NCBI RefSeq assembly: GCF_028502605.1
Contig: NW_026611593.1
Coordinates: forward strand, 1,302,001-1,366,000
DNA length: 64,000 nt
Source of the DNA: Trichoderma breve
Taxonomy: Eukaryota; Ascomycota; Sordariomycetes; Hypocreales; Hypocreaceae
Direction of reading: 5' to 3'
This document shows positions 2,368-64,000 of the stretch, piece after piece. Below the pieces are notes generated by a model. The model ran no database searches and was not told the origin of the DNA. It saw only the letters and a list, made by a program, of their open reading frames with translations. Within the stretch, counting starts at the first letter, position 1. The number at the start of each line of letters is the position of its first letter. The position numbers were made by a program, and so were the translations under genes.

Positions 2368-4374
2368 ATGAAACGAGCGCCTGCAGGCAAAAAGGGCGTG
2401 ACCCTTCCGAAGCGAACTCAGGCGCAGTTGAATGCCCTTGATCGGCTTCCCGAGAACCCAACGCTCGAGGAGATCAAGGAGGCCACAGTCCACGTCTCGC
2501 TGGCCGAACTCGAGGAGAGAGTTGCAGACGTGCGCGACTCGTGGGAGACGGATTCGCTGTTTGAAGATGCGCTCGAGGATCTGACGGATGAGAGTGGAGT
2601 GTTCTCTGGTAGTAAGTTGCCACCCCATACCTTTATTTTACTCAGCATCATGTTCTGCACCTGTTACCGTATTCTGCGTTGTTTGTTGTTGTTCTCATCG
2701 GAAATGACGGTCATGATTTGACTCATAATGCCTCATTTCGGCTTTGGGGTGTTGGGGAGACTCAGTGTGCCCTTTTCATTCTATTCTATTTTTTAATTTT
2801 TTTGTTATTGTGGTGGCTTCAATCTCTACACTACGCAATACCCGAAGCCAATAATGGGCGCGACTAGTTTGGGGGATAGCCGGAAATTGCCTCCTTTGGT
2901 TGCTGCCACTGATTCGAAACTACACATGACCTGATCTGTCGTGATGGAATCCCCAGTGCTGACTTTCCAACTCGCAGGACCAGACACTTGCACTCCAGAA
3001 GAGGCATGTAGATTGCGTCGCGAACTGCGTGAACAGGGGCCTGCTGTCTTTTGTCAGCGCACTGTTGATGCTGGTCGATACAGCGCAAAGAAGCTCCTCA
3101 GCGCCTTTGGCATCCGGCCGCCTGGCTTTCTCGAGGGCGAGCCGGATGAGGCCTATTTCAGCCTTTTGTCGCTGGCCATCACGCGAGAGTTGTCCAAGCG
3201 GGCCAAGTTGCATCGCTACAACACGCTCGACGATGCTGTGCAGCTCATCGAAAAGTGCCAAAACATCATTGTCATCACGGGCGCCGGCATCTCCACCTCG
3301 CTGGGCATCCCGGACTTCCGATCCCAGGGCACTGGTCTGTATTCCAAGCTGGAGCATTTAGGCCTCAACGACCCACAAGAGGTATTTGACATTGAGGTGT
3401 TCAAGCAAGACCCGACCATCTTCTACTCTGTCGCCAAGGACATCATTCCGGCCACTGAGCGCTACACGCCCACCCACAAGTTCCTGGCCATGCTCCATGA
3501 GCGCGGCAAGCTGCTCACCAACTATTCGCAAAACATTGATAATCTCGAGGTCAAGGCGGGTTTGCCCAAGGAGAAGCTCATTCAGTGTCACGGCTCGTTT
3601 GGCACGGCAAGCTGCGTCCAGTGCCACTACCAGATCCAGGGCGAAAAGATCTTCCCAGACATTCGGGCCGGCAAGATCCCCAAGTGCACCCGATGCCTCT
3701 CGTCACTCAAGGCCTCTGGTGCTCCGAAGCGAAAGCGATCTGCAGGTGCAGAGAAGAAGAGGCGGCGATGGGCTGACAATGATAGCTCCGAGGACAATTC
3801 CGAGTACGACATCCCTAGTGCTGGTGTTATGAAGCCCGACATTACCTTCTTTGGCGAAGCTCTTCCCGATGAGTTCTCACGGCGCCTGACGGAAAACGAC
3901 CGTGACAAGGTCGACCTGGTGATTGTCATTGGCACGTCGCTCAAGGTCACGCCCGTGTCCGAGATTGTCAGCTTTCTCCCGCCGCATATCCCGCAAATCT
4001 ACGTTTCGCGCCAGGCCGTTTCCCACATCAACTTTGATATTGACTTGCTGGGCGATTGCGATGTCGTGGTTGCTGAGCTGTGCAAGCGGCTCAACTGGCC
4101 ATTGGTTCACGAGATGGTGCCGGTCGATCAGAAAATTGATGTGCGCACAGAGGAAGGATATGCAAGCCGCCATGTCTTTACAACGAACCAGCCTGGCGTC
4201 GAAGTTGCCAAGGAGATGGAGAACGGCAAGGACGCCAAAGATGTTCATGGCAAGGCTTCTCCAAACGGCAATGTCAAGAGTCGCAAGGCCTCTCCCAATG
4301 GCGATGTTAAGAATGCTAAGCCTGTTCAAAATGGCAAAGAGGGCAAGCAAGCCAAGGGAACCAAGACCGCCTAA
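2368..4374 (+). CDS. sir2: NAD-dependent protein deacetylase, Sir2/Hst1 type
   Basis: Two exons, 2368-2611 and 2978-4374, joined across a 366-nt intron (donor GTAAGT, acceptor CTCGCAG) give 546 residues. The join restores a Sir2-type N-terminal extension ([21 protein letters not shown]), which is typical of Sir2/Hst1 rather than Hst2-Hst4. The catalytic core shows [15 protein letters not shown] for NAD binding, SQNIDNLE, the catalytic His in IQCHGS (about residue 286), a zinc site made of CVQC and CTRC, and VIGTSLKV. A basic patch (KRKRS...KKRRR) sits between the second Cys pair and the core and is probably a nuclear localisation signal. The C-terminal 60 residues are low-complexity Lys/Asn-rich repeats ([16 protein letters not shown]). 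Expected role: NAD-dependent histone deacetylation and silencing in the nucleus. Family assignment is firm; the exact paralogue (Sir2 versus Hst1) is less so. Confidence 0.9.
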
Positions 4375-59031: not shown

Positions 59032-59671
59032 TGAGTTGGACCCGATACCTGTGATACCACAAAGACTGCTGCTTTTTCTTGTTCTTCTTTTCTTCTCCGT
59101 TATACTTTTTTTTTTATTTTCTTGGAAAAAGGGCTCCAATTGGAAGGATACCAACTTGTTTTAACACGTTCTATCTCCTTGGGTTGAATTGATCGTTTTC
59201 TTTCCATCTTTCTCTTCGCGCTGCTCCTTTGGGATTTATGAAGAGCTTCTTTTTCTCTTTTTGTCCTTTTCTGATGGATAGCCGTGTTTTTTTGGTGTTG
59301 ATTAGCAAGGGGAAGAGTTTTATGGTGATCGACAGGCGTAGGGGTTAAGAGAAAGATTTTCTGAGAAAGAATGCTATTTACCAACTTGATAAATCTGCAA
59401 CACACTATTGCCTAAAAAATAATTTATGTGCATGTCTTATGGCTGTGAGAAATTGCTTTTTCCCGTGTGATTTTACTGTTGACACAATGACCCACCAACT
59501 CACTTTACATCTGATGTGGCACTCATCGAACAACAAATATTTGTGTTTCTTCCCTTGTGTAGCTCTATAACACCACCCTGGGTCACTCAGATTGGACTTT
59601 TAATATGAGGTTGTCCACGCCATGCCGTCAGTCATGAACGATGCGAACCACCGTCAGTTCAGCCCCATTGG
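59032..59671. other. Intergenic, start of the duplicated segment
   Basis: 3' flank of the Ysc84 gene, then from about 59440 sequence resembling 61224-61310 (see findings). No gene seen. Confidence 0.5.
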
Positions 59672-60112
59672 TCAACTTAATAGTTGGCTGTAACAACCGC
59701 AACACGCCTCGAGGTAACTTCTTAACCTCACACACCCTAGCAAGGCCTCTTTTAATTCATCAAACGTCTTGGTTGAGACGTTATTCCATATTTGTCTCCA
59801 TCTATCGAGTTCCCATTCCAAACTGTAGCGATCGGGTGTCGCCGTTTTGAATTTCTCAACCTCTTCATCGCTGAAGCAGCCAGATTTGCAGCTGAAACTC
59901 CAAATCACATGTTCATTTTTAGTGTAGACTACTCTGTAGACAATGATCCTATCCTCTTCGAGAAGAGAATATTTTCCCATATAGATAGGGAGGTCCAAGG
60001 CACACTTTTCCTCGTAGTCCTCAACCTCTTTGATCAACTCGTGGAAGTACTTGTCTGGGATCCCAGAATGGCGGCGATTTATAGCATCTGGGGAAAAGAA
60101 GAAGTAAGACAT
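59672..60112 (-). CDS. Unknown tandem paralogue A, 146 aa
   Basis: Single-exon reading of 146 residues. The core VYRVVYTKNEHVIWSFSCKS ... WRQIWNNVSTKTFDEL is clearly related to paralogue B (VYEVAYTKQYQIIWSFLCKK ... WGGTWEGISTKDF). After GCVR the frame departs from B, ending in a Cys-rich tail of no likeness. The homologous C-terminus (PTIKLTNGAELTVVRIVHD, compare PVTELSNGVVMKVMHIIFE) lies in another frame, at 59687-59628. A 44-nt GT-AG intron (59731-59688) would restore it; otherwise the copy carries a frameshift. No signal peptide or membrane segment. Function unknown. Confidence 0.65.
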   Translation of the reverse strand: MSYFFFSPDAINRRHSGIPDKYFHELIKEVEDYEEKCALDLPIYMGKYSLLEEDRIIVYRVVYTKNEHVIWSFSCKSGCFSDEEVEKFKTATPDRYSLEWELDRWRQIWNNVSTKTFDELKEALLGCVRLRSYLEACCGCYSQLLS

Positions 60113-60199
60113 TGTTATGTGCTTTAGAATGAATGAGTCTTTGTTATGAATGCAAATGGTGCTGAATAGAGGTGGTGAAAGAGAAAGATTCGGTCTGTT

Positions 60200-60362
60200 T
60201 AGGGGAACAGATGCGGTTTATATAGAAACCAGAGATGAAACGTTTCTTTATGAGTAGGTGAACGCCTTTGAACATTTTTGAACGCTTTTGCACTTCTTTC
60301 AACATCTTAAATTAGGTAGAGATGAAAAACAATTTGTTAATTAGCAGAACAAAGGACTCCTA
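60200..60362 (-). promoter_or_regulatory. Promoter of paralogue A with TATA and 10-bp repeats
   Basis: On the plus strand, AGATGCGGTTTATATAGA (60209-60226) gives a TATA element about 110 bases before the ATG. Upstream, 60261-60310 is five successive 10-mers of the type AACGCCTTTG / AACATTTTTG / AACGCTTTTG, one per helical turn. A box GCAGAACAAAGGA lies near 60345-60357. Confidence 0.55.
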
Positions 60363-60419
60363 CAAGTGCCAAGTAATTTGAATCGGAATTCTGAAATAAG
60401 GTTACCCACGCCATGCCAT

Positions 60420-60932
60420 TTATTCAAAAATGATATGCATCACCTTCATTACAACCCCATTAGATAACTCGGTAACTGGCATCGCTACTAGCTCGGAGGG
60501 ATAGACTCTGGATCCTTCCTCATCATTAAAAGTCCTAAAACATTCATTCCATACTTCAAGAAAGTCCTTAGTTGAGATGCCCTCCCATGTTCCCCCCCAT
60601 TTTCTCTTGAGTTCCGTAGTTTCGGGAGTCTTTTGTACCTCGCTGAGTGCCTTAGCCTGTGCATCGGTGACATCGGTCTTTTTGCAGAGGAAGCTCCAAA
60701 TGATTTGATACTGCTTAGTGTAGGCCACTTCATAGACAACTATTTTGTTGTCTGGGGCTGGGAAATAACCTGCCATGAGCAAGTCGGGGACCGATTCGAT
60801 CTTTGGAAGCTTGCCTGAGTCCGGCTCTTCCATCTTTTTGTCACAGTCGATCTGGCTAGCCCAGTCTTCGAAGATGAAGGAGTCGATCCGGCCAAATATG
60901 GGAGACGAGCCGAGAATGAGGGAGTTGGCCAT
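60420..60932 (-). CDS. Unknown tandem paralogue B, 170 aa
   Basis: Single exon, 170 residues, the fullest copy of this family here. Order of features: a variable N-terminus (SLILGSSPIFGRIDSFIFED), a charged stretch, then VVYEVAYTKQYQIIWSFLCK, a helical linker (TDAQAKALSEVQKTPETTEL), KWGGTWEGISTKDFLEVWNE, and a C-terminal hydrophobic strand SNGVVMKVMHIIFE. No signal peptide, membrane segment or known catalytic motif. It lies head-to-tail with three paralogues on the same strand and shares their promoter elements. I do not recognise the family. Confidence 0.72.
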   Translation of the reverse strand: MANSLILGSSPIFGRIDSFIFEDWASQIDCDKKMEEPDSGKLPKIESVPDLLMAGYFPAPDNKIVVYEVAYTKQYQIIWSFLCKKTDVTDAQAKALSEVQKTPETTELKRKWGGTWEGISTKDFLEVWNECFRTFNDEEGSRVYPSELVAMPVTELSNGVVMKVMHIIFE

Positions 60933-61024
60933 GGTTGTGTGTATGAGAATAAATAAACTTTTTTGCTTGTGCTGATAGCCCCGAGTATCGGTGATGGAGG
61001 AAAGATACTGGGTTTATTTGGCAG

Positions 61025-61190
61025 AGCAGAGGCGGTTTATATAGATATTCAGAGAACAGGTGTCTATCTATGGGCAAACAAGTTTTTGAACGTCTTTGAA
61101 CGTCTGTGATCGTCTGCGTTTTATAATTAGACATAGATAGAAAACGATTCGCGGATTAGCAGAACAAAGGATTCTTGAATGGCAACGGTG
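61025..61190 (-). promoter_or_regulatory. Promoter of paralogue B with TATA and repeats
   Basis: GGCGGTTTATATAGA (61031-61045) places a TATA about 108 bases before the ATG. At 61083-61120 the motif TTTTTGAACG / TCTTTGAACG / TCTGTGATCG / TCTGCG recurs every 10 bases. A box GCAGAACAAAGGATTCTTGAA follows at 61159-61179. Confidence 0.6.
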
Positions 61191-61440
61191 GCCAATCATT
61201 TACTTGTTTATATGCTTTACGCGCTGTAAGAAATTGTCCCTTTTCCATAGTGATTTACTGTTGACACATTTAAAAAGCAAGCCAGCTTACACTTGATGCA
61301 GCACTCATAATGGCAACAATGGTATATTTCTCTCTAGCTAATCCCCACTACATCCATATCCTGCTACGTTGGTATGGAGAAATAGCAGTCTATTTCTATC
61401 ATCAAGGGGAGCTATTCAGAAAAGAGCAAAAGGAAGAAGA

Positions 61441-61512
61441 AAGAAAACAACAGAATACATAAAAGAAAGAAAACAGCAGAAGACATAGGAAAGAAAACAG
61501 CAGAAGACATAG
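61441..61512 (+). repeat. Purine-rich tandem repeat, three copies
   Basis: Copies of AAGAAAACAGCAGAAGACAT begin at 61441 (with two changes), 61467 and 61491, giving periods of 26 and 24 bases, in the spacer 3' of paralogue C. Confidence 0.75.
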
Positions 61513-61615
61513 TCTTCTATAGCAAACGGACGACGGGGCAGTTGCGGCTTGCAACGTGGGGGGGATCACATGGATCCGTGATTCTCAATAGCTGGAATCG
61601 AACCTCTCAAGGGAA

Positions 61616-62146
61616 CTAACCTACCCGGCGCCAGGTCTCCCATTGGGCTCCTCGATTCGACATGGCCGCTTGATCATACCATTTGAGACGTGCCATGGTC
61701 ATCTTGACCTCGCCCAAAGCCGCCAAAACGCCCTCGGATGTCACCGATGCGTTTTTCGCAGCAATCTCGACATGGACAGGAAGTCGGAGTTTGTCCAGTT
61801 CAGTGGCCCAGTCTTCTTGCTCGAATGATGCAATCATCGTCCATATCTCATTCCATTGCTTGAGAGCATCAATGTATTTGGGGGCAAATCCATTCAAGCG
61901 ACCGAACATGTCGCGGGTATTCGTATTTAATTGCAACCGGTCATTATGGGACCACTTCCAGATGACCATTTCGGTTTCATCGTAATAGGCGATTTCGAGG
62001 ACGCAGAACCTACCGTTGAGCGCCTCGTAGATTTGTCGAAACTTCTGTTTGGTCTTAGATTCTTGATGCTTATCGGGAGCAATGCCGGATATCGCTCCGT
62101 AGAGGAGAAAAGAGGTCTGGCCATGGTCACCGATCTTGAGACTCAT
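61616..62146 (-). CDS. Unknown tandem paralogue C, 176 aa
   Basis: Single exon, 176 residues. It is the most divergent copy but keeps the core: FCVLEIAYYDETEMVIWKWS, then a linker and ALKQWNEIWTMIASFEQEDW, matching the spacing V-x-E-V...I-W-x-W...W-x-x-I-W-x-x-I of the others. The C-terminus (GVLAALGEVKMTMARLKWYD) is longer and different. No signal peptide, membrane segment or catalytic motif. Same strand and promoter style as its neighbours. Function unknown. Confidence 0.65.
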   Translation of the reverse strand: MSLKIGDHGQTSFLLYGAISGIAPDKHQESKTKQKFRQIYEALNGRFCVLEIAYYDETEMVIWKWSHNDRLQLNTNTRDMFGRLNGFAPKYIDALKQWNEIWTMIASFEQEDWATELDKLRLPVHVEIAAKNASVTSEGVLAALGEVKMTMARLKWYDQAAMSNRGAQWETWRRVG

Positions 62147-62247
62147 TTTGCGCTGGTTGGCTGTCGTCGTTCTTGGTGTGTTTGAGTGTTTGAGTCTTTG
62201 CTGTGTGTGTCGATGGTGTTGATTGGGATTGACGGAAGAGAATTATT

Positions 62248-62465
62248 GAGTTTACTTAGCAGAGAAGATGCGGTCTATATAGATAATCAGAGAACAATTA
62301 CTCCTCCATGAGAAGATGAACGTCTTGAGACTTCATTGACTACAGAGGATGAACGTCTTGAGACCTTATTGAGCACATAGGGATGAATGTCTTGAGACTC
62401 CATTGAGCGTATGGGGGTGAACATCTATCTGCGGATCAGGAAAACAAAGGATATCTTGAACGCTG
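62248..62465 (-). promoter_or_regulatory. Promoter of paralogue C with TATA and 34-bp repeats
   Basis: AGATGCGGTCTATATAGA (62266-62283) is a TATA element about 131 bases before the ATG. GATGAACGTCTTGAGAC starts at 62315 and 62348, with variants at 62382 and 62416: periods of 33, 34 and 34 bases. GCGGATCAGGAAAACAAAGG (62431-62450), followed by ATATCTTGAA, closely matches the box in promoter B. Confidence 0.65.
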
Positions 62466-62888
62466 TGCCGCCACAAAAGACTTGGAATAGAATCTTGAGT
62501 TCACCTATGCCGCATCGTCAACTGGTATACACTGGTTTAGCCGCCGCCTAAGGGGGGAGGGTGTGTGTGTGATTGATACATCTTCCTTTTATTCAATTAC
62601 ACTCCGTGTGTCCTGTGTCTGCCATCGTGTCTTGAACGGCAACACTCTGGAACTAGCTACAATGACTGTCCCCTCGGATGACCTTTCCGGTTCCTTGTTT
62701 GCTCCATTCACTTCGCCACCTGTGAAAGATATTTTGGGTCTCTAGATGATGGTATTTGACATTTGATACGTATATGAGAAGAAAAAGTAAGCTGGTTGAC
62801 ACTTGACAGAGCGCTCATATTAGCAACGACAATGTATTTCTCTCCGCAATAGCTTACAACATCCTTCACGTTCAAAGGCTACTGGCAC

Positions 62889-63440
62889 CTAGTTGGAATA
62901 AACGTGCCCTAAAAGCCTAGGATCTGTGATATCCTCGAGATATACCACACGCAACTTGACGCCTCTCTTTTCATTCTCTTTTGTGGTTATCTCTTCGGCC
63001 CTAAGCCCCATGTGTGTAATCTTACTTATCGCAGTTCCAACTTCCCCCTCTTGAGCGTTTGCAATCTCAACCCATGTGTCCTCCCATTTCCGGTAGAGTC
63101 GTTGAGATTCCACTGTTTCGTTTACCTCTTTCAATTTCCCGAGTTCATTGTCCCGGAACCCATCCACGTCACGGGACCAGATCCAGAGAATCTGTTTCTT
63201 TAGACTGTGGAACACTTCGATAACATGGACGTCCTGCTTCTTCTTGATGCCCGGCTTCTTCTTGATACCCGGCTTATCCACTAGATTGTCGCCCCTGTAG
63301 AAGGTTCCAGCTCCCATTTCGTACTTGGTAGGGTAATCTTCGATCCCCATCTCCTTGAAAAATCTGGTAACCATGAGGGAATCGGACTCGCCAAAGCTAT
63401 AAGTATTGTGTTGATGGATCGATCTATTCGACAACAACAT
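62889..63440 (-). CDS. Unknown tandem paralogue D, 183 aa
   Basis: Single exon; the ATG at 63440 (MLLSNRSIHQHNTYSFGESD) is used because the frame upstream has no ATG. It keeps the family core: VHVIEVFHSLKKQILWIWSR, a helical linker, and LYRKWEDTWVEIANAQEGE, with a C-terminal strand RGVKLRVVYLEDI that matches B's. A short internal repeat KPGIKK-KPGIKK (18 bp, 63237-63272) sits just before the core and makes this copy longer. No signal peptide or membrane segment. Function unknown. Confidence 0.65.
   Translation of the reverse strand: MLLSNRSIHQHNTYSFGESDSLMVTRFFKEMGIEDYPTKYEMGAGTFYRGDNLVDKPGIKKKPGIKKKQDVHVIEVFHSLKKQILWIWSRDVDGFRDNELGKLKEVNETVESQRLYRKWEDTWVEIANAQEGEVGTAISKITHMGLRAEEITTKENEKRGVKLRVVYLEDITDPRLLGHVYSN
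63237..63272 (-). repeat. 18-bp tandem duplication inside paralogue D
   Basis: Two copies of CTTCTTCTTGATGCCCGG (plus strand) differing at one base, encoding a repeated KPGIKK. Confidence 0.85.
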
Positions 63441-63544
63441 TTTGTTTGTTTGCACGAGTACGTGAACTTTATTATATTTGCAAATGATGCTAAGAGTAAT
63501 CGATGACGAGCTTCATTATCCTAGAAATCTAGGGGGTAACTGAA

Positions 63545-63680
63545 GTTTATATAGGTAGATAAATAGCAGGCAACTATATGCCAATGAATCAATAATCGTG
63601 TTTGAACAAAGAGTCTTTGAACAAAGCAAGATGAACAGCAGTATCTGCTTTATGAAAACAAAGGATGTCTTGAAGGCGTA
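63545..63680 (-). promoter_or_regulatory. Promoter of paralogue D with TATA and TTTGAAC repeats
   Basis: GTTTATATAG (63545-63554) is a TATA element about 108 bases before the ATG. TTTGAACAAAG occurs at 63601 and again at 63616, with a third TGAACAG nearby. A box GAAAACAAAGGATGTCTTGAA (63654-63674) matches the boxes of promoters B and C. Confidence 0.5.
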
Positions 63681-64000
63681 CAGGCGCTTAACACTTGGCC
63701 AATAATCTTAGGTTTGCCGGTGTCGCATTATTATCTCATCTACGCCGCTTTGGCCTCCCAAGGACGCGTAATCTTGATATTTCACTTTGTTAAGAAAGGA
63801 AAACCTGCTTCCGACGTCTAGAAGGACCTATCCTATAATGTATTCGAAGTATCCTTGATATCAGCCTCAATAGCCAAATTTTCTAACCCCATGCCCCATT
63901 CCACATTCCTCCACCTCTAGCCCTCCAAGTGTCCTCCATAGAGGGCACAATTTCTATGAACATCTCAGAAGATATTGTTACAGACAAAATTGTCGTATTG
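63681..64000. other. Right edge, no gene supported
   Basis: No coding signal seen in the last 320 bases. The paralogue cluster could continue beyond the window. Confidence 0.5.

What the first reader, a model, noticed from the sequence alone, without database searches (positions are those of the whole stretch)
59612..63680. Four-gene tandem array of an unrecognised protein family
Seen: four minus-strand single-exon genes (A 59672-60112, B 60420-60932, C 61616-62146, D 62889-63440) share a core of V-x-x-V-x-x-x-K/E-x-x-x-[IV]-[IL]-W-x-[FW]-[SL], a 25-35 residue linker, and W-x-x-[IT]-W-x-x-[IV]. A and B are obvious relatives; C and D keep the pattern and spacing but little else. None has a signal peptide, membrane segment or known catalytic motif. 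Inference: repeated local duplication followed by fast divergence, as expected of genes under diversifying selection (self/non-self recognition, defence or interaction with another organism). This is my best candidate for an undescribed system.
Basis: partly seen in the sequence, partly recalled or inferred. Interest (0 to 1): 0.8.

Follow-up and report, generated by a model that had tools for sequence, protein, structure and literature searches.

The report
Nine-gene Trichoderma-only tandem gene array
A mould of the Trichoderma harzianum group carries a row of nine small, fast-changing sister genes, most with a copied switch in front, that match no known protein family; their job is unknown, and they look like a new example of the clade-restricted gene families that fungi often make.

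Summary
The four ORFs are real and homologous, but they are only the left-hand end of a larger array. Gene E, just past the window edge, is identical to T. breve T069G_10630, so this is a Trichoderma. Five more ORFs (E-I) follow on the same strand: nine single-exon genes in about 9.6 kb, plus one promoter without a gene, between a Ysc84/SH3 gene and an unmatched ORF followed by an ARID gene. Profile comparison ties A-E together, F-H together, I weakly, and the two halves to each other. Independently, upstream DNA is duplicated, which settles C and ties in G. Of 41 database relatives 31 carry a name, all Trichoderma. Orthologues differ between species more than the published clade average; the duplications are older than the species. 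No Pfam match above cut-off and no convincing fold match were found. Gene A looks C-terminally frameshifted. Diversifying selection, recognition and expression remain untested. A HMG-box-type core (AACAAAG) in seven of nine promoters gives a testable link to mating or hyphal-fusion control, but its count is inflated by duplication. Verdict: real, larger than reported, a new orphan family of a known kind; function inferred only.

The parts
59672..60112 (-). Gene A, 146 aa; core present, C-terminus in another frame than the B-like tail behind it (possible pseudogene or shortened variant)
   Evidence: ORF; A-B hhalign 1e-12; frame change
59586..59654 (-). Stretch behind A's stop that matches the C-terminus of T. 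aggressivum P0007 in another frame (61% over 23 aa, one stop inside)
   Evidence: tblastn
60420..60932 (-). Gene B, 170 aa; AlphaFold2 model beta-beta-beta-alpha-alpha-alpha-beta-beta, pLDDT 80.2, pTM 0.78
   Evidence: relatives P0001-P0007; model
61616..62146 (-). Gene C, 176 aa; the most divergent of the four, settled as a member by upstream homology with B (81% over 67 bp, 2e-11) and by profile
62889..63440 (-). Gene D, 183 aa; closest to gene E beyond the window (hhalign 4e-26)
60113..60359 (-). Promoter of A: CTTTGTT (AACAAAG on the other strand) at 60348-60354, GTTCA repeats, TATAAA 110 bp before ATG
60933..61174 (-). Promoter of B: same layout, CTTTGTT 61163-61169, TATAAA at -109
62147..62515 (-). 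Promoter of C: CTTTGTT 62443-62449, four GTTCA repeats
63441..63728 (-). Promoter of D: CTTTGTT 63657-63663 plus two more CTTTGTT cores, TATAAA at -111
63969..64000 (-). Promoter copy without a gene, continuing to about 64060 past the window edge; it was one of the five sites from which the box model was built

Best explanation
A nine-member, one-strand tandem array (A-I, about 9.6 kb) of an undescribed protein family recognised so far only in Trichoderma, made by repeated local duplication of a unit that includes promoter, single-exon ORF and 3' flank. Shown: array, homology, duplicated flanks for most members, one promoter without a gene, orthologous groups older than the species, high divergence. 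Predicted: a small protein without membrane-type segment whose core is a three-strand beta-meander followed by helices and a closing beta-hairpin. Inferred: no catalytic motif is recognised and the nearly invariant residues of the A-E type are V, W and one Q, so these are most likely non-enzymatic binding proteins, switched on together through TATA promoters with a HMG-box-type site, each adapted to a different or changing partner, most likely where fungal cells meet (mating, hyphal fusion, confrontation). Odds: structural and evolutionary part about 0.9; binding protein about 0.45 (set down from 0.5 because the F-I type keeps charged invariant residues); cell-contact setting about 0.25.
For: Nine same-strand ORFs. 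Whole-genome tblastn with each of the nine proteins matched only places inside this array (E up to 0.001 for B, up to 1 for the rest). hhalign: D-E 4e-26, F-G 5e-16, A-B 1e-12, F-H 2e-7, G-H 1e-6; ABDE-C 1e-6 and ABDE-FGH 3.6e-6, each with 0 of 60 shuffles reaching it. DNA upstream: A/B 1e-24, A/C 2e-19, D/E 6e-17, C/D 2e-14, D/G 5e-7. A box model built from A, B, C, D and the relic finds G at E 9e-5 (18.7 bits); next-best other site 4.7 bits, reversed control 4.4, shuffled 3.6. AlphaFold2 models of B and of the F orthologue P0031 have the core elements in the same order. The HMG-box core A(A/T)CAA(A/T)G (PMC3730723, passages) occurs as AACAAAG upstream of 7 of 9 genes.
Against: The F-type model is poor (pLDDT 55.7, pTM 0.55) and has an extra C-terminal helix. 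The link between the halves covers only about 35 residues. I is tied in only at 3e-4 (30.2 against at most 20.6 in 60 shuffles). H's box does not score above chance alone (3.7 bits); E and F lack the core. AACAAAG sites were inherited by duplication, so their number is not independent; only the A/B alignment gave a permutation value under 0.05, and on the opposite strand 2 of 10 CTTTGTT also fall in the same upstream stretches. F-I relatives share invariant R35, K68 and S82, so an enzyme is not excluded. No expression data. A may be broken.
Confidence: 0.55

Rival explanations
1. Decaying orphan genes: a clade-specific family under weak constraint, duplicating and dying by neutral birth and death, with no recognition role.
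For: Promoter copy without a gene; A frame change; short members P0006, P0024, P0030 and three apparent fusions P0008, P0022, P0039 among 41 relatives; PMC6560777 reports fast-evolving orphans in Trichoderma with about 40% expressed in T. reesei and T. virens (passages).
Against: Apart from the short and fused ones, relatives of B-G and I keep similar length and an open frame at 48-94% identity, or 100% for the T. breve E; core columns are conserved; the CTTTGTT and TATA blocks are among the longest identical runs between promoters.
Confidence: 0.3
2. Allorecognition or heterokaryon-incompatibility determinants under diversifying or balancing selection.
For: Fast divergence; copy-number differences are suggested by locus tags, as T. 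aggressivum D and F types are consecutive (Triagg1_249, 250) with no E between; [quoted passage not shown]
Against: No HET or NACHT match in the Pfam scans; mid-contig position (1.36 of 3.04 Mb); no HET domain in the four neighbouring ORFs scanned; no polymorphism data.
Confidence: 0.15
3. Selfish killer or meiotic-drive family regulated during mating.
For: Tandem, fast-evolving, clade-restricted; promoter boxes are 1-3 mismatches from the Ste11 TR box TTCTTTGTTY (PMC3416868, one passage; sites).
Against: No toxin-antidote layout or multi-membrane feature seen (hydropathy only); orthologue groups persist across species, unlike what I recall of drive genes.
Confidence: 0.05
4. The four frames are chance ORFs and the motif is coincidence.
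For: C and D share little sequence with A and B.
Against: Frames conserved across species for B, C and D; shuffled-column controls; duplicated promoters.
Confidence: 0.01

Closest known systems
Clade-restricted orphan genes of Trichoderma (PMC6560777, passages seen)
   Same: No known domain, restricted to a clade, fast-evolving; some occur in clusters, in T. reesei up to eight genes
   Different: That paper found most T. reesei orphans single and did not support duplication as the main origin; here nine genes arose by duplication that includes promoters
Neurospora lineage-specific gene clusters (PMC10684091, passages seen)
   Same: Clustered lineage-specific genes with few or no domains; expression there responds to the mat 1-2-1 locus and hyphal communication factors
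   Different: Those are mostly near telomeres and with HET-domain genes; this array is mid-contig, and the four neighbouring ORFs scanned have no HET domain. That paper found no binding-site enrichment; here a promoter box is kept
HMG-box target promoters of Podospora and fission yeast ((A/G)ACAAAGAA; TTCTTTGTTY; PMC3730723 and PMC3416868, passages seen)
   Same: Core AACAAAG
   Different: In A-D the box reads AACAAAGGA; 1-3 mismatches to the TR box across sites; binding untested

Membership tests
One homologous family, genes A-I | Shared core V-x-E-[VI] ... [IV]-[IL]-W above shuffled-column controls | tested here: met
   A-H linked directly or through cluster profiles; I weak (30.2 against 20.6)
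One homologous family, genes A-I | Duplicated flanking DNA | tested here: met
   met for A, B, C, D, E, relic and G; F had no upstream match, H and I only weak ones (E 0.01-0.026)
One homologous family, genes A-I | Same predicted fold in both halves | tested here: inconclusive
   Core elements in the same order, but the F-type model has pLDDT 55.7 and an extra helix
HET / NLR allorecognition proteins | HET or NACHT domain | tested here: not met
   No such Pfam match
Small secreted cysteine-rich effectors | N-terminal signal sequence and many cysteines | tested here: inconclusive
   Hydropathy only, no signal-peptide predictor: none of 9 array proteins passes 1.6 (highest 1.19, gene I at residue 1); 0-7 Cys, 7 only in A
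Genes under diversifying selection | dN/dS above 1 at some sites | not testable with these tools
   No DNA of relatives obtained; paralogues too diverged
Known fold superfamily | Significant structural match | tested here: inconclusive
Targets of HMG-box mating/fusion regulators | Core A(A/T)CAA(A/T)G in promoters | tested here: met
   7 of 9 promoters; not independent because duplicated; E and F lack it
Targets of HMG-box mating/fusion regulators | Binding by, and expression dependent on, an HMG-box factor | not tested
   Needs the bench

The most novel reading that the evidence does not exclude
A Trichoderma-specific, HMG-box-controlled array of paralogous binding proteins with a new fold, diversified as a set for cell-to-cell recognition during hyphal fusion or mating: an allorecognition system without HET/NLR domains.
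Probability: 0.1. Interest if true: 0.75.

Novelty: new member of a known kind. Interest (0 to 1): 0.4.

Why it matters
It is a clear case of an orphan family built by promoter-inclusive tandem duplication, where the published Trichoderma survey did not support duplication as the main source of orphans (PMC6560777, passages). Because units, promoters, a relic and orthologue groups can all be read, it can test whether orphan arrays are adaptive or decaying. If the promoter link to HMG-box factors holds, it would give a direct handle on what clade-specific genes do during fungal cell contact.

Full report
What is there. The window is G000:C7:1302001-1366000 of a 38.5-Mb, nine-contig genome. Gene E of the array is identical to T. 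breve T069G_10630, so the organism is T. breve or close to it. The four ORFs exist as described. Whole-genome tblastn with D found a further copy just past the window edge. The adjoining 10 kb (L009) holds five more ORFs on the same strand: E C7:1366396-1366896 (166 aa), F 1367686-1368162 (158 aa), G 1368552-1369109 (185 aa), H 1369756-1370178 (140 aa from an inner ATG of a longer ORF), I 1370837-1371262 (141 aa, likewise). A to I span about 9.6 kb; gaps between neighbours are 307-955 bp. On the left lies a Ysc84/SH3 gene, on the right a 417-aa ORF without Pfam match and then an ARID gene. Each of the nine proteins was searched in the whole genome; apart from self, the matches were other array members. 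These are single-sequence searches that score only the best candidates, so distant copies elsewhere could be missed.

Are they one family? Group profiles were built from the nine proteins and 37 of 41 database relatives (four fragments or fusions left out). hhalign gives two clusters: A-B 1e-12, D-E 4e-26, B-D 8e-7, B-E 6e-6; and F-G 5e-16, F-H 2e-7, G-H 1e-6; most other single pairs are not significant alone. C joins the first cluster at 1e-6 (score 45.3; highest of 60 column shuffles 22.7). The two clusters match each other at 3.6e-6 over about 35 residues of the core hairpin (42.9 against 16.7). I joins F-H at 3e-4 (30.2 against 20.6). DNA gives a second line: upstream regions align for A/B (1e-24, 65% over 248 bp), A/C, B/C, C/D, D/E and, across the two clusters, D/G (5e-7, 72% over 61 bp); several 3' flanks align as well. 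A DNA model of the box region built from A, B, C, D and a promoter copy at about 64012 finds G at E 9e-5, the next other site in 93 kb having 4.7 bits, the reversed control 4.4 and the shuffled one 3.6. So a unit of promoter, ORF and 3' flank was duplicated. F shows no upstream match, and H and I only weak ones. Between D and E one promoter copy stands without a gene.

Distribution and age. Three homologue searches returned 41 distinct proteins; 31 carry an organism name, all Trichoderma, and 10 carry none. From recall, the named species belong to or near the Harzianum clade. Neighbouring locus tags show the order kept elsewhere: Triagg1_247-250 are B-, C-, D- and F-type, CFAM422_001388-001390 are F, E, D, V8C43DRAFT_309655 and 309656 are B and C, J3E68DRAFT_264095 and 264096 are G and F. 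In T. pleuroticola, T. compactum, T. velutinum and SZMC 28011 and 28013 the tags of two members are not consecutive, though each pair is listed with the same longest-contig length. In a tree of 30 A-E-type proteins the B, C, D and E groups each gather several species, so the duplications are older than these species; A and P0029 are on long branches and their place is unsure. Group mean identities are 61-80%, under the 97-99% average similarity published for orthologues within a Trichoderma section or clade (PMC6560777, passages). Absence of relatives outside Trichoderma is limited by the word-based search.

State of the genes. All nine frames are open from an ATG. In A the core lies in frame -1, while the stretch that matches the C-terminus of T. 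aggressivum P0007 lies in frame -3 and contains a stop; A's last strand is therefore probably lost. Two of the 41 relatives (P0004, P0005, both B-type) have a hydrophobic N-terminus (maximal 19-residue hydropathy 2.34 and 2.68); none of the nine array proteins passes 1.6.

Promoters. A, B, D and E have TATAAA at -109 to -111. CTTTGTT (AACAAAG on the other strand) lies in the 350 bp upstream of 7 of 9 genes; in 93 kb, 9 of 22 sites on that strand fall there against 0.46 expected, and 2 of 10 on the opposite strand. Because the promoters are duplicates this overstates the evidence: the box is in the longest identical run of the alignments A/B, A/C, A/D, B/C, C/D and C/G and in the second longest of D/G and D/relic that span it, but only A/B has a permutation value under 0.05 (0.04). 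AACAAAG fits the HMG-box core A(A/T)CAA(A/T)G and resembles sites bound by Podospora PaHMG5 and fission yeast Ste11 (PMC3730723, PMC3416868, passages). In Neurospora more than a quarter of the lineage-specific genes respond to perturbation of the mating locus, though without binding-site enrichment (PMC10684091, passages). This is a lead, not a demonstration.

Mechanism. Shown: duplicated units, homology, divergence, orthologue groups older than the species. Inferred: small binding proteins, jointly inducible, most likely used where fungal cells meet. The main rival is neutral birth and death of orphan genes; the promoter relic, the damaged A and the fragments fit that as well. DNA of the relatives (dN/dS, polymorphism), expression data and an array deletion would decide.

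Verdict. The finding is real and larger than reported: a new family of a known kind. Diversifying selection is unproven, and a recognition role is possible but not favoured over decay by any result here.

Noticed in passing
window 60933-60960 (just upstream of B): B's 5' leader is open in frame with B and, translated, lines up weakly with the hydrophobic N-terminus of relative P0005 (E 3e-4 for a stretch that is largely B's own start), as if a leader became a membrane segment in some species or the reverse.
   Followed up: partly
L009 4106-4117: A three-codon upstream frame (ATG TCC AAA TGA) overlaps the ATG of gene G, seen; it may affect translation or mean that the start is misplaced.
   Followed up: no
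L009 about 3660-3720 (gene G) and window about 63235-63270 (gene D): Short in-frame repeats: three YREDER units in G; a doubled PGIKKK in D that T. guizhouense has in altered form and the other full-length D relatives lack.
   Followed up: no
window 62315-62406: Local repeat upstream of C (25 bp at 92%); GTTCA repeats lie upstream of A-E, though GTTCA is common in the region (about 1 per kb and strand).
   Followed up: partly
L009 6686-7939: A 417-aa ORF beside gene I with no Pfam match; to the eye it does not resemble the array family.
   Followed up: partly
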